From Glandiceps talaboti (Eukaryota; Hemichordata; Enteropneusta; Spengelidae), in contig NC_135564.1 in assembly GCF_964340395.1 (NCBI RefSeq), positions 861,501-925,500 on the forward strand: a stretch of DNA of 64,000 nt, in the 5' to 3' direction. The notes beneath the pieces are model-generated. The model was not told where the DNA came from. It saw nothing but the letters and a program-made list of their open reading frames with translations, and made no database searches. The translations under genes were made by a program, and so were the position numbers. Numbering within the stretch: the stretch's first letter is position 1; the number at the start of each line of letters is the position of its first letter. Below, piece after piece: positions 11,891 to 58,504 of the stretch.

Positions 11891-14800
11891 CTGTAAATAG
11901 AAATGACAGCAGTGAAATGACAGCAGTGAAATGACAGCAGTGAAATGACAGCAGTGACATGACAGCAGTGAAATGACAGCAGTGAAATGACAGCAGTGAA
12001 ATGATAGCAGTGAAATGACAGCAGTGAAATGATGAGTCATTTATATAATATTTATTATACTGGGTATTAATTAAATTTCTCAGGCAATGTACTATTATTT
12101 CTTTTATAAATCAAATAAAATTTGGTATCTTTTCAATTTATTTTACAACCAACCAACCAACCAACCAATCAATCTAACACTTATTTATTTATCAGATGAC
12201 CATTTATGAGCTAGTCCCATTTATAAGCTCCTTTCATTCAGTGTTAATGCAGGAGGAAACTGGAGTAACCTGCATTGTACAGTAGAGTCAAACTGAACGA
12301 CACTCTTCTTACTTACAGCATGGTAAATTTAATCAAACCAAGCCGACACCTTGCGGGTTCGAACCCAGGCTGTACAGGTAAGAGGCATATGAGCTAATAG
12401 ATGCAAACATGCAGGTGCCAATGTTTTCATGTCTGCATGGTGGCAAGTTAAAGTTCATTACATTTAGACAAAGTGTAGCAAGAATCTGTATTACGTAATT
12501 TAATCTTGATGTCATAAAGTGTAGCATGTGTGGTTTCTGTGTGGTTGTAGCATATAGAGCCAGTGAACACTAACATGAAATGGGTTGTAAGAAATGACTA
12601 ATTGACAGGTATTACACCTGCATTGATATATCACACAGGACCGTGTAAAACTGGTTGTACAGATCTAATAGTAATTTAACATGAAAACACAGATATATGT
12701 ACCGTAATACTCGTAATTCATCAATTAATTGTACACCTACCTGTTCGATCTGTTCCTGTGTGTTCATCACAAATGGTCCATACCTTGCTACAGGTTCATT
12801 TAGTGGTACACCACCTAACAATAGTATGTGGCACACTGTAAAGTAATCAAACAAGTCCACTCAGTGGTTTGTTGTTTTGACAGCTCACTAGCCCACAGAC
12901 TTGGCTAGCTGGCATGCAGACATACAAGCTTGAGTTTTCTGGCAAAGAGGACAGACAGGCTGGATAGCCAAGTCTCTCAGCTAACAGCTCTAGTGTATGA
13001 AAGTTTCAGAACATACAAATAATTTGCTTGACAAAATCTAAATACTTGAATATCATTTTGCATAAATTTCCACAACGATGGCGTTCCATCCACTGTTTCC
13101 TTTCTCACGATTTTAATACTAAAGCTTGTCAGAGAGATGTCCCCCTTCTGTTGGCATTGCTAGTTGAAGACTAGGTGGCATGTGTTCCCCTTCAAAACTG
13201 GAACTTTTGTCAATTCTAACTTGAGTTTGGTGAATTGCATTTTGACAAGATTTGTATGACGAGTCTACTGAAATTGTAAGCTCTGGTGTTAAAAGTTGTG
13301 TTTGTATAGAATGTGTTGATATTCCAAAAAGTTTCCTCATTTAATTAAGTAGAATCTTCACACAGCTCTAACTATATTCAGAAGTACATATAACCTTTAA
13401 CCTCTGTCATGTTTGACCCATGACCCTTCACATACCTTGGTTGTCATCTGCTTGCATTGTAAACACAGATCCAGCTGTGAGTTCACCAATTTGACCCATT
13501 TTGGCCGGTTTCTTGTCATGACCAAGAAAGCCTGCTCCTCTCCATATATATGCAAATCCATTATAGGACTCTGGTACTTCCTGGGTAAAACTGGCACCAG
13601 GCTGGAGGCGAATATCTAGATACATTATTGGAGTTCTTGTCTCAATGTAGGCCTGGGTACCTGTATAGAATACCAATGGGATAATAGAAGTTTATCACTC
13701 GAAAAAAATGGAATACAATTTTAGTAAAGTACATTCTTAGCACTTGTCATATTTGAATGAAAGAATGGTAGATACGTAATTCTTAAGTCACACTTTAGGG
13801 AGTTTCTTCAACTTCAAGTCTTTTATAAATACTTAGAGTAAATGTAACATAGTGTGTATTTGTTACATATCTGTATCTCTGTATCGTTCTTTCAAGTTTT
13901 CTTTCAAGTTTTCTGTTTTTCAAAGAGAGTGGGCAGACACATTTATAGCTCAGACATAGTGATCTGAGCTTATAGTGAGTCTCTAATCCATGGTGTCTCT
14001 ACTAACATTTCAGAAAGAGTTTGTGTGTCTCTACACCAAGTATGAATTTTATCGATGACTTAGAAGGCTTCACCTGTACAAAACAAAGTGATATATTTGA
14101 TAACTTTTATTGGTGACTTAAAAGGGCTCACCTGTACAAAACAAAGTGATATATTTGATAACTTTTATTGGTGACTTAAAAGGGCTCACCTGTACAAAAC
14201 AAAGTGATTTACTAAGTGACTTTTATTGATGACTTAGAGGGGATCTCCTGAGTGACTTTTATTGAAGACTTTGAGGAGCTCTCCTGAGTGACTTTTATTG
14301 AAGACTTTGAGCTCTCCTAGTGACTTTTATTGATGACTTAGAGGGCCTCTCCTGAGTGACTTTTATTGATGACTTTGAGCTCTCCTGAGTGACTTTTATT
14401 GATGACTTTGAGGAGCTCATCTGAGTGACTTTTATTGATGACATAGAGGGGCTCTCCCGAGTGACTTTTATTGAAGACTTTGAGGAGCTCTCCTAGTGAC
14501 TTTTATTGATGACTTAGAGGGGCTCTCCCGAGTGACTTTTATTGATGACTTAGAGGGGCTCTCCTCAGTGACTTTTATTGAAGACTTTGAGGAGCTCTCC
14601 TAGTGACTTTTATTGATGACTTAGAGGGCCTCTCCTGAGTGACTTTTATTGATGACTTTGAGCTCTCCTGAGTGACTTTTATTGATGACTTTGAGGGGCT
14701 CATCTGAGTGACTTTTATTGATGACATAGAGGGGCTCTCCTAGTGACTTTTATTGAAGACTTTGAGCTCTCCTAGTGACTTTTATTGATGACTTAGAGGG

Positions 14801-42400: not shown

Positions 42401-45400
42401 ACACACAAACATGCACACAAACCCATACACACATGTACATGCACACAGACACAGACATAGACTAGACACACACACACACACACACTTTACCATACCATAC
42501 CATGCCCATAGTATACAGACAATACAATATTATTTAATACACATATTATAAACATTAACTGCTGAAGAAAGCTGAGTGATTTAGATGAATAGCCTTGATA
42601 TATATTAATTATACTCTCACTTCAGAATTAATACTAAATATTATTCCAAAGTAAGGAAACAAGATATTTGGTTGTAGAACTAATATTAAGTTTACCTATG
42701 GATACCAACCTGAAGCCCTTTACATCTTAATTGTTGTTCTATCTGTTGAGTCATTAATGTGGAATCTGAAGTGACTATAGCAACTGAGTTCAATTCTATA
42801 AACAACAAAATATCACGTATTAGTAGCCTGTATAAGTAAGATTTAAAAAGAAGGATATAGGGATTCATGTAGCTGCCAATGGTGGAGTGACATCACATTC
42901 ATGTAGCTGCCAATGGTGGAGTGACATCACATTCATGTAGCTGTCAATCAGGGAGTGACATCACATTCATGTAGCTGTCAATCATGGAGTGACATCACAT
43001 TCATGTAGCTGTCAATCATGGAGTGACATCACATTCATATAGCTGTCAATCATGGAGTGACATCACATTCATGTAGCTGCCAATGGTGGAGTGACATCAC
43101 ATTCATGTAGCTGTCAATCATGGAGTGACATCACATTCATGTAGCTGTCAATCATGGAGTGACATCACATTCATATAGCTGCCAATCATGGAGTGACATC
43201 ACATTCATATAGCTGTCAATCATGGAGTGACATCACATTCATGTAGCTGCCAATCATGGAGTGACATCACATTCATGTAGCTGTCAATCATGGAGTGACA
43301 TCACATTCATGTAGCTGTCAATCATGGAGTGACATCACATTCATGTAGCTGTCAATCAGGGAGTGACATCACATTCATGTAGCTGTCAATCATGGAGTGA
43401 CATCACATTCATGTAGCTGTCAATCATGGAGTGACATCACATTCATATAGCTGTCAATCATGGAGTGACATCACATTCATATAGCTGTTAATTGTGGAGT
43501 GACATCACATTCATATAGCTGTCAATCATGGAGTGACATCACATTCATATAGCTGTTAATTGTGGAGTGACATCACATTCATGTAGCTGTCAATCATGGA
43601 GTGACATCACATTCATGTAGCTGTCAATCATGGAGTGACATCACATTCATGTAGCTGTCAATCATGGAGTGACATCACATTCATGTAGTTGTGTTTATAC
43701 ATTCCATGCATAATATGGATAGGGAAATAGGTCCTGGTAGCAGAGGAGGGCAAAGTGTTAAAACTTAGATAGATTTCTACACCTTGTACCATAATTTTGG
43801 TGGCTAACCCTGGGAACAGGAGGGGAAATCAGGTAACACTTGTATATATGTCCACACCTTGTTCCATAATTATGGTAGGGCACTCTGGTAACAGAGGAGG
43901 AAAATCTGGTAAAATGTGCATATATGTCCACACCTTGTACATGTATCATAAATTAGTGTGTACCATGGTGACAGAGTTGGGAAATCTGGTAAAATCTTTG
44001 TATATATCTATATCTTTATTGTTATCATAATTTTGGTGTACACCCCTTATCAAAATTCCTAGGTAAAATTAACCTACCTCCTGCCATAGAAATGAAATAT
44101 GCTAGTGAACATATTGAATCTGTTACCTAGCAATAATTCTGTACAGAGATCTTATGATCTATTTAATCTATACTTGTACTAGTGTAACCTGATCTTACCT
44201 TTAGCTAGTCCTTCTGCCGTGTACAAATCTCTCCTGTAAGTCACCTGTAGTATGGACAATAGAAAAGAAGATTAGCGTTATAATCCTCAGAGTATGGCAA
44301 CCTGTGTAATAGTAAGAGGGATAGAAGCAAGACTCTTTAACACTCGTTACATCAAAGATGTAATTCAAAGATGACTGATTTAGTAAGTTGACTACCATTA
44401 CGTTCAAACCACAAATAGACTTCAGATGACAGTGCTTTAACAACCACAAGTTGACTCAAGGGATTCAAGCTATGGATAGCCTCTACGCTACAGAGCTCCT
44501 ACAAATTATAGTTCAGGAGAGTATGGTCTTCCATGGGGTAAATCCTTACAATTTCTCTAACATAATTCAACTGCTTGAATAATGAATAACTGTGTAATAT
44601 ATTGTTGAAGTTTATCAGTGAAGTTCAGACATAACTTTGGAGATGGAATAATGAATAACTTTGTAACATAGTAGTAGTAGTAGTAGTAGTAGAATCATTT
44701 ATTATAGTGACATGAGGTAAACAGACTACCGCAAAAAACAAAACAATTTACATTACACAACCTCCCAGCCAAATAGGCTTATATGTCACCTAAAGTGAAA
44801 TAAAACATAATTAGAACAGATTGAGGAGCTTTTTTACAATAATGAAAATATCATTTACAAGGCAAAAATAAGAGTTATGAATTAATGTACAAGTTGTCCC
44901 TTCTCCTACTTCTCCTACTACTACTACTCTACTACTATGAACCCCAATGTTGAGTCTGAACTTCATTGATAAACTTGTCATGGATTGGTTCCTTGTTTCC
45001 ACTTTCATCTCCAGTACAGACTAAGTACCCTTTGTCTTCTACATATGTGACATACGCCCTCACATGATCAATTCATCATATCTTTTATAGTCATGTAAAC
45101 AATACAGACGTATTAGTTTCATGTCAGTGAATGCATACAATGGCAAGTAATGTCTATGCCCCTCCTATGTCTAATAATACTAATTACTAAATGTGAATGC
45201 TTTGAATTATATAATGGCTTGTTACATCACACCTCACTATTCACAACAACACTTCACAAGGGCAGTAAGTTATATGATAATATGATTACTTTTCACTTTC
45301 CCACACTACTCAAGTACTTTACAATGATTCCTCCATGCATAATAATAACAACAACAGTACTACATATTTATTGCCATTATGCATTTTAAAAGTACATTTG

Positions 45401-48524: not shown

Positions 48525-51500
48525 CTACACCACGCCTATAGCACTTCTGAACTTTAGTTCAATTGTGCTAAAATGTTTATATTCACAGTAGTACATGTGA
48601 ACTAAAACCAAGAGTTCATCTTGTAAAATCATAGTAAAACTTTAACAATAATTTAGACACTACCTTCCAAATATCTCCAGTAGCTGAGACTAATTTTGCC
48701 CTAGTTGATGTATATTTTAATGCCAGCTGCAGGCACTCTGTACCATGGTCTAGGTCTTCCTCACTTATCTGGGGAAATGAAAAATGATGTCTGAGAGTAA
48801 GAATACATGTAATATGATACTGTGTCAGAATGTATGACACCACAAGGCAATATGATTAGGTATGACTACAGTATACAAAGATGGTACCTTGTCAGAATGT
48901 ATGACATCACAAGGCAATACAACTAGATCTGACTACAGTATACAAAGATGGTACCTTGTCAGAATGTATGACACCACAAGGCAATACAACTAGATCTGAC
49001 TACAGTATACAAAGATGGTACCTTGTCAGAATGTATGACATCACAAGGCAATACAACTAGATCTCACTATAGTACACACGAATGGTACCATGTCAGAATA
49101 CTGCTTTGTTTATCATACCTCAAGAGGACATTGAACTAAATCATCTTTATATAATCATGCCACTTATCCCCTTTATACTTAAATGACCCCATTTGACCTG
49201 GCACCCCACCCCACCCCATCAACCCTGGTTCCAAATCAGTCTGCATGTACAATATTTAACTATTTTACAACATGATTTCCGACATGAATATGTAAGTACT
49301 TTCTTGGAAAGTACTTTCTTGGAAATTAGACATGTACTTTTATTGGCATATAAATAATTAATGACCTCATAATTCTCCATTTATTGAAATCAGTTAATTC
49401 ATCGAAATTGAACAAAATCTTTTTATGAGAACATTAAAGTGAACAGCCTAATAAATTAAGACCCATAAAAGATGAATGAGAAAAACAACCCGGAATAATG
49501 AATACCAACAATTTTAAAATACTGTGAAACAGTAAAATTATCATTTCAAGTTATTTAAACTTTTTCGCTGGTGTTTTTTTTCGACAGTAAAACCCCTGTG
49601 AAAATACTTTTACTCAGTTACTATGTACATTGTGCATACCTTCCTAAATCAATGACAATTGAACCAGCAAATTTCTCTTTCCCCTAAAATTTAGCATTCC
49701 ACTGTATGTGCTATTATTAAGAACACTTGAATGCAAGATTGCAAGGATATGATTTAACATGATGTACTACCAAACCAGAGTGACTATAGAGTTTTTAATG
49801 AGGAGATACAATGTTTTTTTGGTACCAATTACACAAACAAAATACAGGCACCGATAACATGCAACAAGTGTTACATTTTATCTCATTGTGAACACAAATA
49901 AACAGTTTGTGTTTGAAATTGAATCTTTCTTGTTTTGTCCAACAGTGATGTTGATTTGTGTCCACAGTGAGAAACAATGTGCAAGCTGTATCATTTTATA
50001 ATATGATTGTGTGCTGTCAGTGTCTGTAATTTGTAAAAAAAGCATTGAGTGAGACATAAAAAAATATCATGCTGCCTAATTGAAACTTTATAGTCACTTT
50101 GGTTTGGTAGTAATATCATGTCGCCTAATTGAAACTCTATAGTCACTCTGGTTTGGTAGTAACATCGCACCGCCTAATTGAAACTCTATGGTCACTCCGG
50201 TTTTGTAGTAACATCGCATTGCCTAATTGAAACTCTATAGTCACTCTGGTTTGGTAGCAACATCGTGCCACCTAATTGAAACTGTCGAGTCACTCTGGTT
50301 TGGTAGTAACATCATGCCGCCTAATTGAAACTGTAGTCACTCTGGTTTGGTAGTAACATCATGCCGCCTAATTGAAACTCTATAGTCACTCTGGTTTGGT
50401 AGTAACATCATGCTGCCTAATTGAAACTGTATAGTCACTCTGGTTTGGTAGTACATTGTACTACCTATTTGAAACTCTATAGTCACTCTGGTTTGGTAGT
50501 AACATCGTACTGTCTAATTGAAACTCTATAGTCACTCTGGTTTGGTAGTAACACCATGTCGCCTAATTGAAACTCTATAGTCACTCTGGTTTGGTAGTAA
50601 CACCATGCTGCCTAATTGAAACTCTATAGTCTCTCTGGTTTGGTAGTAACACCGTGCTGCCTAATTGAAACTCTATAGTCACTCTGGTTTTATAGTAATG
50701 TGATTGCCATGGTATCAAGTAAACAGGGAAAGACGGAAGAAAGCCTTTAATGTTGATATTAATCTTTGCACAGTTCATGTACATGTACATGTAGATGATT
50801 CATAGTAATCTAAAACTAGATGTGATTTATGAAACTAATAAAAGATATGATACTCTAGTAAATCTATTTTACTACACTGAAACTGCCTTCCCAGTGTAAC
50901 ACAAACAAGTCTTTAAAATTGAATTTAAAGAGGTTGTTAGCATTTTATAACTGCTACTGTATCTTCATCAATAGCTAAGTTATAAACAAGGTTTGTGATA
51001 GCAACATGGTTGTATCTTGGACATGCAGTCATTACCCAACATCAACATTATCAGGTTTACTAAGAATGGGTGACTGCACAGTTTTTAGGTTTTGCTCTTT
51101 TCTATCTCTGTCCCATCAATCCTACACAACTTGAACATTATCAGATTTGCATGTAAACATGAAGCTGTAATTGTTACCATCAAAATTATTAGGGTTCCTG
51201 AGAATTGGCAGCTGTATAATTTTAATAATACATTGTAATAACAATAATAAAGAAAATATAAAGAGTGCCTAATCTCTGCAAGCAGAGTTTGAGGTGTAGA
51301 AGTAAATGGAAAGTAAATTGCCGTATGGTATGAGGAAAAATGGATTGACAGACACTGGATACTAGCCATATGGTACGAGGAAAAGTGGATTCACAGACAC
51401 TGGATACTAGGCAATTGAAGAAGGCAAAGACTGATGTTTAAAGAGATAGGTCTTGAGAGAACGGTGGAAGGATGTAAGAGACTTGGAGTGGCGAAGATCG

Positions 51501-54500
51501 AAAGAAAGATTGTTCCATGATGTAGGGCCAATGTGAGAGAAAGATCTCTGGCCAAAACTCTTTGGCACACAGAATAAGAGAATCAGAGGAAGAGCAAAGG
51601 TGTTGCTGTGTTTTATCTCTGCCCTGTACTTGTTACACAACATTATCAGGTTTCCTGAGAACACACAGATGCACAGTTTTGAGGTGTTGCTGTGTTTTAT
51701 CTCTGCCCTGTACTTGTTATACAACTTCAACATTATCAGGTTTCCTGAGAACAGGCAGATGCAAAATTTTCTGGTGTTAATGTGTTGTATCTAACCCTGT
51801 TATTGTTACACAATTTCAACATTATCACAATATCAGTAAAGGGGTGGCTGCACTATCTTGGGATGTTGTCATAAACTCTTAGAAGGAGTGGCTTCATTTA
51901 TATGCTTTAGTTCCATCTGAGACCTCCATCACATGCAAACTGTTATCAAAACTATGATAACCTGCATAGATAACCTTGGCTGCTATATTTCAACAATTAT
52001 AGTGAAATTACCAGGCATGTTACAAATTGTATGTATCACTTATGATGAAACGGTTTGTTTTCAATTCATGGTGAGTGATATCTTGAAAGGTTCATCTTTG
52101 TAGAAGGAGGTCAAGGACAGCGTGTTGTATGTTCATTCATCTTATTTTTACAGCAATGTTTTTTATCTGAGTTGAAGCTGTTTATCAATTCTGCTTGTGG
52201 CTGTGTAAATTAAATATTTACTAAATAACCTATTTCTAGACTTGAGATTGTTTTTTGCTTAGAATGTTAAAACATCATGACCGCTAAGTAGTTGGGGAGG
52301 TTGGTTGGAAAGAGAAATAGTTTCCTATATGTGTGCTGTATTTTTTGCTGAGATTTTAGAACATTATAGTAGCGGTTTAGAGAGGGAGGTGACTGTTTGA
52401 AATTTTTTTTGACAGTTTCCTAAACATAAATCATTTCTGTAATGCCATGGTAGCAGAGTAGTGGAGGATGGAGACTGTTTGACATAGCAAAGTATCTTTC
52501 TGATATTTAGAATATATATAGAATAATTGGATGTTATTCCATACTATTTGTCTTCATTCAGCCAAGAAAAATAAGAGTGACCTAAGGGGTTTTGTCACGA
52601 GTCACTAGAGGAGTAGTGACAAGGGCCCCTTAGGTTATGAGAATTTGAATGAAGTTGGGGAATAATATATTTAAATTTCCTCATGTATAATTTATGAAAA
52701 ATCAGGAAAAGTACAGGTGACTTGGTATGTTTTGACTGATATTTGGAGTGTAGAATCAGTGACAAAGGATGAGCAGGGTATATAATCCATATTTTCTGTT
52801 TGAAGACAATAACTTGGCTTGTGTATCGTATAATACAACATACAATACCAACATAAATTTTCTATTTAACCTAAGAGTTCATATCAAGTCTAAATTGTAA
52901 TCATGAAAACCTCATGAGATTACAAACATTTCTGTTGAGATAAAGAGGAGTAATATATAAATTATTCTTTTTCCCTGGATTATTTAAAAATTGTAATTTC
53001 TGTGTTTGTACATTTTAGATATGATGCACACAGTGCCCTCAATCTTGATCTCTGGATGTCTATGTAAGTTTATCATGATATGCCATCAATCTGGTGGATG
53101 GTAGGCAATCTCTATTTTGTTTGACATCATAACTGCATGCCTTTAGCATGTGGCTGACAATATATTTTGATCTTACCTCAGTATACGCCTTGTGTATGAC
53201 ATCATAACTGAATGCCTGTGTGTGTCTGGCAGTATATTTTGATCTTACCACACTATACGCCTTGTGTATGACATCATAACTGCATGCCTGTAGCATGTGG
53301 CTGGCAGTATATTTTGATCTTACCTCAGTATACGCCTCGTGTATGACATCATAACGAAATGCCTGTGGTGTGTGGCTGGCAGTGTATTTTGATCTCACAA
53401 GGGAATGATCCAAAAAGCCATCTTCAGTTGGTGCAATTACAGTTGATACCAATGGCTGAATTGCTCCTGCTGCCTTAGGATGGGAAAAGTGGGAACAAAA
53501 ATGAATTTTAAGGAAATTGACCTAATGTTCAAGTTTTATGGAATCAAATAGTGTTACAAAATAGTAAACACAAGGTAACAGGAATACAAGCACAACTGAT
53601 AAGTACACCTGGCTTTATTGCAAAATCATTAACTACGATAATAAACTTATGAATATGTTGTTTTTGCACTACCTCTGCAAAATACATCTGACATTGTCCA
53701 TCACGACAGTTGATAGACCGACAATTTACACTACATGTGATTTTAACAGTTGTTGCTCCATTTGCATAATTGTGCTTCATTTGCATATTCACCCAGACAT
53801 ATGAATACCGTGAGTTTACTACTATCAAACATGTAGAAAGCTGTCACCATGTTTTGATATAAATTACACACGTGGTTGACTACTATCACTGATATCACAT
53901 GATAAGATGGATGTGTTAATTCAAGTCTCTGCCAAATGTAGATCGAGTGTTATGAAGACATAACCTGGCCATCCTATGATTTCATGAGAACAACAGAAGT
54001 TAGTTCACACATAACAATGTTTGGCATGCATCACTTGTATTAGTGTGAGTTACAGTTAGCATCCACTGTAATAGTGGGATATAATAAAGGTTTCCATGGT
54101 GATTACTTACTCCATGGTTGTGTGCTGCCTTGGAAACTTGTGATAAAATGTCTTCATCAGCAAATGGTCTGACAGCATCATGTATAATAATAACATCAGG
54201 TTTATCAAGATCATTAACAACTTTTAAACATTTCTTGATAGATCTGTGTCTGGTTTCGGCTCCCTCTATTACAAGGACTTTGGTCAAATTGTACTTTTTA
54301 ACTTGATTTTGTAGAAATTCCAACCTTTCTTGTGAAACAGCTACAACTACAGTGCCAATCCAAGGTATACTAAAGAGAGAATAAATAAAATATCTATTTA
54401 GATACTAAAAGTATTAGTACATCCCAACATTCAAATAAACCATTTTATTCTTTTTCTATGAACTGCTTTAGTTGGCTTATAGCTATACAATGTAAATACC

Positions 54501-57500: not shown

Positions 57501-58504
57501 TGGGCGCTCTATTGTGAGCTGTATTTCTCTTTGTTCTAGTACCATGAACAGACTTTGAAAAGTGCACTGCTCAAAAGATACATTCATGCTGCAAGAATAA
57601 GCTTGACACCAAGTATATATATAGTTAAACTGTTAGCTTAGTTTTGAATTCAACTAATTAAATTCCCACCTGTCATTATTTAGTCAAATATTTCCCTAAC
57701 TGTACAACAACATTACTAGGTCAGTATATTGTCTTACACTTTTTAGTGTTCACCTTCCAACAGGACCAATTCCTTGCAGAAATAATCTAGTGTATGTATA
57801 GACTTTTCAAATTAACAGTAATTTGATATCTCCCTGAGAGGTAGAATTGTTTCCAATGCGCTGACAACGAACAGGTGCATGTCATATTAAAATATGCAGT
57901 GAATGTAATATTAGTTAGTATGCATGCCTGCTATGGGTTACATAACGCTTTGCTGAAACCCCTGCGGTATGGGCTATTAGCCTGCTAAACGGTGAATAAA
58001 TGACCTTGAATGGCATCGGGCCTCTCTTTTGTTCGATAGAAATCACCACATTCCACCACAGAAAGAAGAGCAAGAACGGTCTATTGTTCATCATTTCGTC
58101 TCGTTATACTGATTCTTGCTGCCATGTTGGACACATCGACTGACCCACAAGGCGGCGAGAGGTAAGGTTTTCACTGTCTATGAACAAGTGTGCATGCAAA
58201 TACAGTTGATTGCTTCTGAACGCTTTGCTTGGGAAACTGTGTACTTGTGATGCGTGTTGTCATAACAACGATGTGGGTTTTTGTTTACATTTTTAAAGAA
58301 AAACGACAATGTCAATGAAATGCACTAACAGTGACAGCGTAACATTTACGTGATTTTGTCTGGTCACCTTTCAAAACGCTGCAGTGTGTAGGTTATCAAG
58401 GGGCGGCCAAGGACTTCACAGTACTGTTTCGGAGTTTGAAGACCCATTCGTTCACCTGTTCCAGCGGCTGGTAACACAGCATACGTCGTGAACTCCATTT
58501 CCAT
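39363..58504 (-). CDS. CRPPA: CRPPA / ISPD, D-ribitol-5-phosphate cytidylyltransferase (nine coding exons, 386 aa)
   Basis: Makes CDP-ribitol from CTP and ribitol 5-phosphate, the donor for the ribitol-phosphate units of the matriglycan linker on alpha-dystroglycan; a cytosolic homodimer in vertebrates. Exons: 58368-58504, 54111-54369, 53324-53473, 48664-48768, 44199-44244, 42710-42795, 42042-42107, 40993-41205, 39363-39461; all junctions in phase. The IspD-type nucleotidyltransferase domain occupies about residues 8-225: [11 protein letters not shown] (11-21) and PKQ (25-27) for CTP binding, GAETRHRSI (82-90), [11 protein letters not shown] (105-115), [18 protein letters not shown], and [12 protein letters not shown]. 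The rest is the eukaryote-specific C-terminal domain, shorter than human (451 aa in total). Gene length is 19 kb because the introns hold many minisatellites. Exon 3 has an unusual in-frame tandem duplication in the following intron. Confidence 0.95.
39728..40018. repeat. 17-bp minisatellite
   Basis: Seventeen units of GAGGTGTTTGGGGTAGT with AAGT and AGAT variants. G-rich on the plus strand (one GGGG per unit), so G-quadruplex-prone. In CRPPA intron 8. Confidence 0.93.
40150..40945. repeat. 47-bp minisatellite, about 17 copies
   Basis: Unit with CACCTTTTGTCATAGTCAGT and CATTGGTCACATAGGAGAC, ending within 50 bp of the CRPPA exon 8 donor. Two unit types (CATAGTCAGT and CCTAATCAGT) are interspersed. 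Confidence 0.93.
40993..41205 (-). CDS. CRPPA: CRPPA exon 8
   Basis: 213 nt between TTTTACAG and GTATGT, phase 0 both sides. Encodes the last part of the C-terminal domain, including [20 protein letters not shown] and [14 protein letters not shown]. Confidence 0.88.
41731..41938 (+). mobile_element. TTAA-flanked MITE-like element
   Basis: TTAAAGGCCC at the left, GGGCCTTAA at the right, internal TTCCATCCCAGGTTCTCACA and GTGGGTCAACTTTTTCTATA. One of the few copies with both ends in place. In CRPPA intron 7. Confidence 0.65.
42042..42107 (-). CDS. CRPPA: CRPPA exon 7
   Basis: 66 nt between CACAATAG and GTAAGT. Encodes [18 protein letters not shown], aligning with the human GRHLQQIILDQCYNFVCV helix and strand. 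Phase 0. Confidence 0.82.
42258..42484. repeat. (CA)n-rich microsatellite with a C10 run
   Basis: Interrupted CACA/CATA/CCCA repeat. Open Cys-Val frames on the minus strand are artefacts of the repeat. Confidence 0.92.
42710..42795 (-). CDS. CRPPA: CRPPA exon 6
   Basis: 86 nt between TTTATAG and GTTGGT. Encodes [20 protein letters not shown]; phase 1 in, phase 0 out. Start of the C-terminal domain (human QEICVVMDTEEDN). Confidence 0.83.
42860..43690. repeat. 34-bp minisatellite, about 24 copies
   Basis: Unit TCACATTCATGTAGCTGTCA plus ATCATGGAGTGACA. Left units have GCCAATGGTGG, right units GTCAATCATGG. In CRPPA intron 5. Confidence 0.95.
43775..44045. repeat. Diverged repeat of about 75-80 bp, three to four copies
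   Basis: Units share CACCTTGTACCATAATTTTG-like, GGAGGGGAAATC-like and ATATATGTCCACACC-like blocks. Confidence 0.6.
44199..44244 (-). CDS. CRPPA: CRPPA exon 5
   Basis: 46 nt between ACTACAG and [21 protein letters not shown] matches human VTYKRDLYAAESIIK closely. Confidence 0.93.
45590..45830. mobile_element. tRNA-derived SINE-like element, degenerate copy 3
   Basis: Retains TTCCTCAACTCCCTAGGGAG, CTACCAGGTCTCCAATTATA and CCAAGGACTTTAGCAG blocks in the same order as the copy at 15984-16362. Confidence 0.55.
45833..46116. mobile_element. 284-bp MITE with TAGCCCC termini
   Basis: Left end TAGCCCCATCTACA, right end TGTAGACGGGGCTA: inverted, with TA as possible target duplication. Subterminal TCCTACCTGAGG also occurs inverted near the right end. 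The interior is CpG-rich relative to its flanks (GATGTCGCGCC, GGACGTGTTTGCG). In CRPPA intron 4. Confidence 0.75.
46215..46380 (-). mobile_element. TTAA-flanked MITE-like element, minus orientation
   Basis: AGAAGTTGGTCCTGAACAAC, TTTCACTGATAAGATAACAC, and GGGCCT followed by TTAA at 46377. Confidence 0.6.
47239..47866 (+). mobile_element. TTAA-flanked element with five-fold internal 117-bp amplification
   Basis: Begins TTAAAGGCCAAGG and ends GGGCCT/TTAA. The interior (TTCCATGTTCTCACA through CACACCTAATGTTT) is repeated five times at an exact 117-bp period (ATGTTT at 47367, 47484, 47601, 47718 and 47835). The copies are almost identical, so the expansion is recent. Confidence 0.8.
48357..48524. 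repeat. (CATA)n then (CAGA)n microsatellite
   Basis: About 31 CATA units followed by 10 CAGA units, 140 bp from CRPPA exon 4. Confidence 0.95.
48664..48768 (-). CDS. CRPPA: CRPPA exon 4
   Basis: 105 nt between TTCCCCAG and [26 protein letters not shown] corresponds to human [18 protein letters not shown], the end of the nucleotidyltransferase domain. Phase 0 in, so it accepts any of the three exon 3 donors. Confidence 0.94.
48822..49098. repeat. 67-bp repeat, four copies
   Basis: TGTCAGAATGTATGACATCA and ACTACAGTATACAAAGATGG in each unit. Confidence 0.88.
49760..50700. repeat. 49-bp minisatellite with an inverted copy upstream
   Basis: About 13 units (50065-50700) of CTAATTGAAACTCTATAGTC plus ACTCTGGTTTGGTAGTAACA. 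A single inverted copy, GTACTACCAAACCAGAGTGA, lies at 49764-49800. This layout suggests an element with inverted ends whose right end was amplified. In CRPPA intron 3. Confidence 0.85.
51240..51590 (-). mobile_element. LINE fragment (3' end of a non-LTR reverse transcriptase gene)
   Basis: Minus-strand frame ending at 51407 contains [20 protein letters not shown] and [14 protein letters not shown], the typical C-terminal tail of CR1/L2-like LINE polyproteins. After the stop comes a short 3' region ending in TTTATTATTGTTATTA at about 51235. Heavily 5'-truncated, no catalytic residues remain. Confidence 0.75.
51595..51775. repeat. Direct repeat of about 85 bp, two copies and a third partial
   Basis: GGTGTTGCTGTGTTTTATCT and ATTATCAGGTTTCCTGAGAA twice, then a diverged copy to about 51840. 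It abuts the LINE fragment. Confidence 0.75.
52533..52669. mobile_element. GTGACCTAAGG palindromic element, copy 2
   Basis: TTATTCCATACTATTTGTCT at one end and GAAGTTGGGGAATAATAT at the other; core GTGACCTAAGGGGTTTTGTC and GACAAGGGCCCCTTAGG. Confidence 0.6.
53123..53323 (-). repeat. In-frame tandem duplicates of the CRPPA exon 3 end
   Basis: Following the normal exon end (unit 1, 53324-53398), unit 2 (53249-53323, 75 nt) and unit 3 (53177-53248, 72 nt) repeat the segment [18 protein letters not shown] and on, with changes ([19 protein letters not shown]). A partial unit 4 ends near 53123. No stop interrupts units 2-3, and each of units 1-3 is followed by the same donor GTAAGATC (53316-53323, 53241-53248, 53169-53176). 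They could be skipped as intron or added as 25 or 49 extra residues. The PQAF motif of the family is intact only in unit 1. Confidence 0.9.
53324..53473 (-). CDS. CRPPA: CRPPA exon 3
   Basis: 150 nt after ATCCTAAG, phase 0 both sides. [19 protein letters not shown] then [20 protein letters not shown] and IHEAYTE, matching human AAGAIRPLVSTVVSPSADG and SEMPQAFLFDVIYEAYQQ. The low boundary is the first of three identical donors. Confidence 0.92.
54111..54369 (-). CDS. CRPPA: CRPPA exon 2
   Basis: 259 nt between CTCTTTAG and GTAAGT. Contains [13 protein letters not shown] and [19 protein letters not shown], core of the cytidylyltransferase fold; the Asp of HDAVRPF is in the position of the metal/substrate loop. 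Confidence 0.95.
54540..54866. repeat. (CATA)n microsatellite with CACA and CAGA interruptions
   Basis: About 330 bp of ACAT tetranucleotides. All four dense reading frames across it (Tyr-Ile-His-Thr or Met-Tyr-Val-Cys) are repeat artefacts. Confidence 0.96.
54885..54990 (+). mobile_element. Possible LINE 3' end
   Basis: GGGACATCTTGATGGCCTGAA followed by ATAAAGAAATAATACTGATA and AATAATAA. Ending in an AATAA-rich microsatellite, this looks like the 3' terminus of a CR1/RTE-type LINE. Only about 100 bp is recognisable. Confidence 0.35.
55488..55612. mobile_element. GTGACCTAAGG palindromic element, copy 3
   Basis: TTATTCCCCAATATTTAAGG left, AATTATTGGAGAATAATA right; core GTGACCTAAGGGGCCTTTGT and GACAACCTTTAGGTCAC. 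A further partial copy precedes it at about 55400-55460. Confidence 0.6.
55620..58367 (-). other. CRPPA intron 1, first part
   Basis: Unique AT-rich DNA. Includes a C-rich stretch at 56438-56463 and a roughly 260-bp region (about 56287-56545) bounded by GGGTTCTCCC and GGGGAGAACCC, perhaps another inverted-repeat element. No exon recognised apart from a weak plus-strand candidate at 58134-58161. Confidence 0.4.
58368..58504 (-). CDS. CRPPA: CRPPA exon 1 (start codon)
   Basis: ATG at 58502-58504 (a second ATG two codons on gives MEF). [20 protein letters not shown] is the CTP-binding P-loop-like motif of IspD-type enzymes. Donor GTGACC, leaving two bases for exon 2. Human CRPPA has a longer N-terminus. 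Confidence 0.93.

What the first reader, a model, noticed from the sequence alone, without database searches (positions are those of the whole stretch)
53123..53473. CRPPA exon 3 end is duplicated in tandem into the intron, giving three in-frame splice donors
Seen directly: after the normal end of exon 3, the last 75 nt recur as 75-nt and 72-nt units plus a partial unit. Units 2 and 3 stay open in the CRPPA frame and each unit ends in the identical donor GTAAGATC. Exon 4 starts in phase 0, so any donor gives an open protein (386, 411 or 435 aa predicted). Unit-specific changes keep the tyrosine, SYDVI and AYT residues but lose the conserved PQAF. A coding minisatellite at a splice boundary could tune isoform length in an enzyme that is normally rigid in this region, near the substrate pocket.
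Basis: partly seen in the sequence, partly recalled or inferred. Interest (0 to 1): 0.75.

Follow-up and report, generated by a model that had tools for sequence, protein, structure and literature searches.

The report
CRPPA exon-end "mirage" minisatellite
The last 75 bases of one exon of an animal sugar-transfer gene, with its splice signal, have been copied in tandem into the next intron; this closely resembles the "mirage" repeats known from lancelets and is most likely a harmless by-product of local DNA duplication.

Summary
On the minus strand, exon 3 of an animal CRPPA (ISPD) gene (53473-53324) ends in a 75-nt unit that recurs as U2 (75 nt), U3 (72 nt) and a decayed partial U4. U1, U2 and U3 are each followed by GTAAGATC (53323, 53248, 53176), and splicing any of them to exon 4 keeps the frame open. 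The functional reading is not supported. Only the first donor gives the length of human CRPPA. U4, intronic whichever donor is used, is equally open. Changes among U2-U4 are almost all amino-acid-changing, and the donor columns are no better conserved than the rest. Tandem duplications of exon/intron boundaries with repeated splice signals are a described kind, the "mirage" minisatellites of lancelets, whose authors suggest that they do not disturb regular splicing (passages). This locus matches that anatomy, in a minisatellite-rich window (41 arrays, 18% of bases). No RNA data were available, so donor use, including a possible constitutive 49-residue insertion from the third donor, remains untested.

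The parts
58368..58498 (-). CRPPA exon 1 coding part (from ATG at 58498; an in-frame ATG also 6 nt upstream), donor GTGACC
   Evidence: N-terminus of the IspD domain aligned to human ISPD 4CVH
54111..54369 (-). CRPPA exon 2, donor GTAAGT
53324..53473 (-). CRPPA exon 3, 150 nt, canonical form; second half (53324-53398) is repeat unit U1
   Evidence: Gap-free alignment to 4CVH across exons 3-4; Pfam IspD PF01128
53398..53398 (-). Weak donor-like GTGAGATC at the start of U1, inside exon 3
   Evidence: U1-snRNA duplex energy -4.4 kcal/mol; 14% of the 4169 GTs on this strand are at least as strong
53323..53323 (-). Donor 1, GAG|GTAAGATC, the presumed canonical donor
   Evidence: Only donor that gives human-like length; energy -9.6
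53249..53323 (-). Unit U2, 75 nt, first intronic copy
53248..53248 (-). Donor 2, GTG|GTAAGATC
   Evidence: Energy -8.0
53177..53248 (-). Unit U3, 72 nt, second intronic copy with a 3-nt deletion
53176..53176 (-). Donor 3, GAG|GTAAGATC, as strong as donor 1
   Evidence: Energy -9.6
53119..53176 (-). Unit U4, partial decayed copy without a donor at its end
48664..48768 (-). CRPPA exon 4, phase 0 acceptor
44199..44244 (-). CRPPA exon 5 ([15 protein letters not shown]); its inferred donor also reads GTAAGATC
   Evidence: aligned to 4CVH; its 3' end is inferred from the donor sequence

Best explanation
It is a mirage-type minisatellite: a local tandem duplication whose unit happens to be the 3' end of CRPPA exon 3, ending exactly at the splice donor. 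A 75-nt segment between the exon-internal GTGAGATC and the donor-side GTAAGATC (7 of 8 bases alike) was duplicated, the two units diverged, and the two-unit block was probably then duplicated again, giving U1-U2-U3-U4 with U1/U3 and U2/U4 as pairs. Splicing most likely still uses mainly the donor of U1 at 53323, so U2-U4 are intron. The inner donors may give some in-frame longer transcripts, tolerated as noise. Shown: the array, its units, repeated donors, open frames, and the length match of donor 1 to human CRPPA. Inferred: microhomology as trigger, order of duplications (few informative columns), dominance of donor 1.
For: Anatomy. Donor 1 alone gives a gap-free match to human ISPD 4CVH through exons 3-4. 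Three substitution columns group U1+U3 against U2+U4 as aligned (two under other equally good placements of the 3-nt gap) and none conflict. Changes within U2-U4 are nearly all nonsynonymous (U2-U3 0.5 syn: 5.5 nonsyn; U2-U4 0:4; U3-U4 0.5:7.5; the pairs share branches), compatible with the neutral expectation of about 70-74% nonsynonymous and 20-27% synonymous. U4, intronic for every donor, is open for 38 codons. P(one mutated copy stays open) is 0.62-0.76 for 6-12 random changes. The nine donor columns hold 2 of 16 variable columns, P 0.71 under random placement. 41 arrays of period >=10 cover 11,742 of 64,000 bases, against 9,971 of 180,000 in 18 sampled stretches of the same genome. Published precedent: lancelet mirages are suggested not to disturb regular splicing (passages).
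Against: Period and the one indel are both multiples of three, and both potentially coding copies are open; a rough post hoc product, by hand, is about 0.05-0.06 by chance. Donor 3 is as strong as donor 1, and an intron-proximal donor can be preferred (DOK7 minigenes, where it was also the stronger one; passages). Pfam does not separate the forms (113.2 bits canonical, 115.5 with U2 and U3). Comparisons with U1 have dS above dN (U1-U2 0.265/0.138, U1-U3 0.23/0.055, U1-U4 0.369/0.218), though U1 is itself under constraint and the sites are few. U1 and U2 differ by 15% and yet no GT of the three donors has been lost. The mirage authors note that such repeats could give alternative transcripts.
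Confidence: 0.74

Rival explanations
1. Donor 3 (or 2) is the main donor in this species, so its CRPPA constitutively carries a 49-aa (or 25-aa) insertion after EAYTE, before the conserved GTECLQLAL segment.
For: Donor 3 equals donor 1 in U1 pairing (-9.6); a preference for the intron-proximal site is documented for one human gene (DOK7, passages); both insertions are open and in phase; the insertion falls between conserved blocks.
Against: No such insertion in human ISPD 4CVH or in the one bacterial relative (6xhp) whose alignment was printed; U2-U3 show no constraint; lancelet mirages are suggested to splice regularly.
Confidence: 0.12
2. Regulated isoforms: the array of in-frame donors tunes CRPPA length and activity.
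For: Three donors in phase, open frames, in-frame 3-nt deletion.
Against: Neutral-looking substitutions in U2-U3, openness shared by non-coding U4, donor columns not specially conserved; no expression evidence.
Confidence: 0.08
3. Raw material for a new intron or exon (Rogers-type intron creation by duplicated splice signals, as proposed for lancelet globins).
For: Model given for mirages in PMC3087553 (passages).
Against: The repeated part is an exon end with its donor; the real acceptor of exon 3 (at 53474) is not part of the unit. Acceptor-like sites inside the array were not searched for.
Confidence: 0.03
4. Assembly artefact that inserted false copies.
For: Tandem repeats can be misassembled (general knowledge).
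Against: Copies differ from each other by 7-21%; the stretch has one match in the assembly (whose counts are lower bounds); chromosome-scale contigs.
Confidence: 0.03

Closest known systems
Mirage minisatellites of lancelets (Adh3, BflGb6, BflGb9, troponin C, PGBD5)
   Same: Tandem copies of an exon/intron boundary, units of 10 to about 160 bp, splice signals in many copies, copies 81-100% alike in BflGb6; BflGb9 duplicates the 3' boundary of an exon, as here (passages of PMC3087553 and PMC3902484).
   Different: Other gene (CRPPA); units in phase and open, so extra copies could be translated; length polymorphism and undisturbed splicing not testable here; host probably not Branchiostoma.
PGBD5 108-bp repeats of lancelet
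   Same: Imperfect tandem copies abutting a 5' splice site, with a predicted but unconfirmed extra segment (passages).
   Different: There an automatic prediction made the second and third copies a separate exon of 57 residues, which the authors left out; here whole units could extend one exon by 25 or 49 residues.
Intron creation by tandem duplication of AG/GT sites (Rogers model; Gao and Lynch; named in PMC3087553, originals not read)
   Same: Same raw event: internal duplication that includes splice signals.
   Different: No new intron is recognised here.
Human CRPPA/ISPD (PDB 4CVH)
   Same: Same gene over exons 1-5.
   Different: The aligned human protein has no repeat or insertion at this place.

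Membership tests
Mirage minisatellite | Tandem repeat whose unit spans or abuts an exon/intron boundary | tested here: met
Mirage minisatellite | Repeated splice signals in many copies | tested here: met
   Three GTAAGATC donors
Mirage minisatellite | Regular splicing not disturbed | not testable with these tools
   No RNA data held
Mirage minisatellite | Length instability between haplotypes or cells | not testable with these tools
   Single match in the one assembly
Mirage minisatellite | Occurs in a cephalochordate genome (as the cases seen do) | tested here: inconclusive
   Genome unnamed; 22 contigs above 18 Mb seen (C25-C44 not looked at), unlike the 19-20 chromosomes of Branchiostoma (recalled)
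CRPPA/ISPD gene | IspD domain with best match to human ISPD | tested here: met
   PF01128 113.2 bits; 4CVH E 8.8e-70, best of 30 matched sequences; both with a provisional exon 1/2 join lacking 3 residues
CRPPA/ISPD gene | C-terminal domain of animal CRPPA | tested here: inconclusive
   Exon 5 aligned; later exon candidates had no match above a curated cut-off
Functional alternative 5' splice site exon | Coding constraint on the extension | tested here: not met
   (small number of sites, so weak)
Functional alternative 5' splice site exon | Transcripts that use each donor | not testable with these tools
   No RNA data held

The most novel reading that the evidence does not exclude
A mirage whose units stay in the reading frame, so that a glycosylation enzyme of an animal outside the lancelets is made in two or three lengths, or constitutively with a 49-residue insertion, set by repeat number and donor choice: a coding, copy-number-variable exon end.
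Probability: 0.15. Interest if true: 0.6.

Novelty: new member of a known kind. Interest (0 to 1): 0.3.

Why it matters
If ordinary, it adds a clean, in-frame case to the mirages and hints that they may not be limited to lancelets. It is a natural experiment on how a spliceosome chooses between near-identical donors 72-75 nt apart, which RNA-seq from the species would answer at once.

Tried and rejected
Coding constraint on U2-U3: tested by Nei-Gojobori counts and a stop-gain simulation; no support, on few sites. Extra conservation of donor bases: none. Pfam score as a test of the insertion: does not discriminate. U1-snRNA pairing as a test between donors 1 and 3: equal. Retrocopy or paralogue of CRPPA that would reveal the donor used: the own-genome protein search did not complete. 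Species identification from a mitochondrial contig: of contigs C45, C46 and C47, the first 10,000 bases of each were fetched; C46 looked like a satellite, the longest open frames (first 90 residues shown) gave me no mitochondrial gene, and ARAGORN found no tRNA; other small contigs were not looked at. Other exon-boundary repeats in the window: for nine exon pieces (five of CRPPA, one of them a guess, and four of pirin; exon 3 not in the set), a self-search found each piece itself and, for the four pirin pieces, one distant copy each. Structure prediction of the long isoforms was not run, as spliced proteins are not letter-for-letter window sequence. Literature: no held paper has both CRPPA and minisatellite (the alias ISPD was not searched with it); other searches are. 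One search translated a wrong frame and read only 1 of 18 stretches; one search replaces it.

Full report
Observation. On the minus strand, exon 3 of a CRPPA (ISPD) gene runs from 53473 to 53324 (150 nt). Its second half, U1 (53398-53324), is followed head to tail by U2 (53323-53249, 75 nt), U3 (53248-53177, 72 nt) and a partial U4 from 53176 that is alike for about 57 nt. TRF finds the array with period 75, 3.7 copies, 87% matches, score 423. U2, U3 and U4 each begin GTAAGATC, so a donor sequence follows each of U1, U2 and U3. U1 begins with the similar GTGAGATC inside the exon. Every donor gives an open frame into exon 4, with +25 or +49 residues for the second and third.

Gene. A protein joined from exons 1-4 (provisional exon 1/2 join, 3 residues short) matches human ISPD (4CVH) with E 8.8e-70, best of 30 matched PDB sequences, and Pfam IspD with 113.2 bits. 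The match runs through the exon 3/4 junction without a gap when donor 1 is used. The same query with U2 and U3 added scores 115.5 bits in Pfam, so that score does not decide between the forms. Exon 5 also aligns to 4CVH. Later exons were not confirmed.

History of the units. Of 16 variable columns (gap-only columns left out), three pair U1 with U3 against U2 with U4 as aligned, or two under other equally good placements of the 3-nt gap, and none conflict; five columns set U1 apart. The simplest reading is one duplication of the 75-nt unit, divergence, then duplication of the two-unit block. The likeness of GTGAGATC and GTAAGATC at the two ends of the unit suggests a microhomology-driven start. 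Both steps are inference; the original start of the intron is not known.

Constraint. U2-U3 differ by 0.5 synonymous and 5.5 nonsynonymous changes, U2-U4 by 0 and 4, U3-U4 by 0.5 and 7.5 (these pairs share branches). Random single changes would be about 70-74% nonsynonymous and 20-27% synonymous. So there is no sign of protein-level constraint on the copies, though the sites are few. Comparisons with U1, which is constrained itself, have dS above dN: 0.265 and 0.138 for U1-U2, 0.23 and 0.055 for U1-U3, 0.369 and 0.218 for U1-U4. A copy with 6-12 random changes stays open with probability 0.76-0.62, and U4, intronic whichever donor is used, is open for 38 codons. Of 19 arrays of the window that I picked by hand from the TRF list, 5 have a period divisible by three. 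Period, in-frame deletion and two open copies together have, by my rough hand product, a chance near 0.05-0.06, counted after the fact. The nine donor columns hold 2 of the 16 variable columns (P 0.71 for 2 or fewer).

Donor choice. Pairing energies with the U1 snRNA end (typed from recall) are -9.6, -8.0 and -9.6 for donors 1-3 and -4.4 for the exon-internal site; the donors of exons 1, 2 and 4 give -6.6, -8.0 and -7.9. Sequence strength therefore does not decide between donors 1 and 3. In one human gene, DOK7, the intron-proximal of two competing donors is preferred; there it is also the stronger, and SRSF1 helps (passages of PMC5585400). For lancelet repeats of this kind, Adh3 data and globin RT-PCR suggest that regular splicing is not disturbed, although the authors note that the repeated signals could give alternative transcripts (passages of PMC3087553; also PMC3902484). 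I weigh the direct precedent and the human-like length most, and expect mainly donor 1.

Place in the protein. IspD enzymes have a beta-arm subdomain that joins the dimer and holds the substrate site (passage of PMC11770629). U1 carries the conserved TPQAF segment (recalled as near the substrate); U2 reads MLQAC and U3 TQAF, without the proline. Any insertion would come after U1, so the native segment stays intact and the added copies would sit before the next conserved block.

Known kind. [quoted passage not shown] The original Adh3 paper is not held and was not read. This locus meets the anatomical features. Splicing and instability could not be tested.

Background. In the window 41 arrays of period 10 or more cover 11,742 of 64,000 bases. 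In 18 stretches of 10,000 bases from the same genome, 50 arrays cover 9,971 of 180,000 bases, 8,705 of them N. So the window is about three times denser than this sample. The genome has 590.4 Mb in 47 contigs, with 22 contigs above 18 Mb seen (C25-C44 not looked at). Branchiostoma has 19-20 chromosomes (recalled), so the host is probably another animal, but it was not identified.

Verdict. A real repeat, well described by analogy; the functional reading is open but unsupported. On recheck, the number of columns that pair the units fell from four to three; the odds did not need to change.

Noticed in passing
17354-15035 and about 8050-5877, minus strand: Two pirin genes or gene copies lie in tandem downstream of CRPPA; four exon pieces of the first match the second at 87-98% identity; Pfam Pirin 105.4 bits on a join of three pieces.
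   Followed up: partly
44198-44191, minus strand: The inferred donor of CRPPA exon 5 starts with the same octamer GTAAGATC as the repeated exon 3 donors, although exon 5 shows no repeat in the self-search.
   Followed up: partly
14047-14250: A 58-nt tandem array in which the minus strand shows TTTTGTACAGGTGA in three copies, an acceptor-like tract directly joined to a donor-like GTGA (GTGAG in two of them).
   Followed up: no
51407-51790, minus strand: An open piece that reads like the tail of a retrotransposon protein ([18 protein letters not shown]), recalled likeness only.
   Followed up: no
L004 (contig C46 of the same genome): A 17-kb contig that in its first 10,000 bases looks like a satellite of short GGTTTGGACC-like units, with open frames of about 300 codons on both strands under mitochondrial codes.
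   Followed up: no
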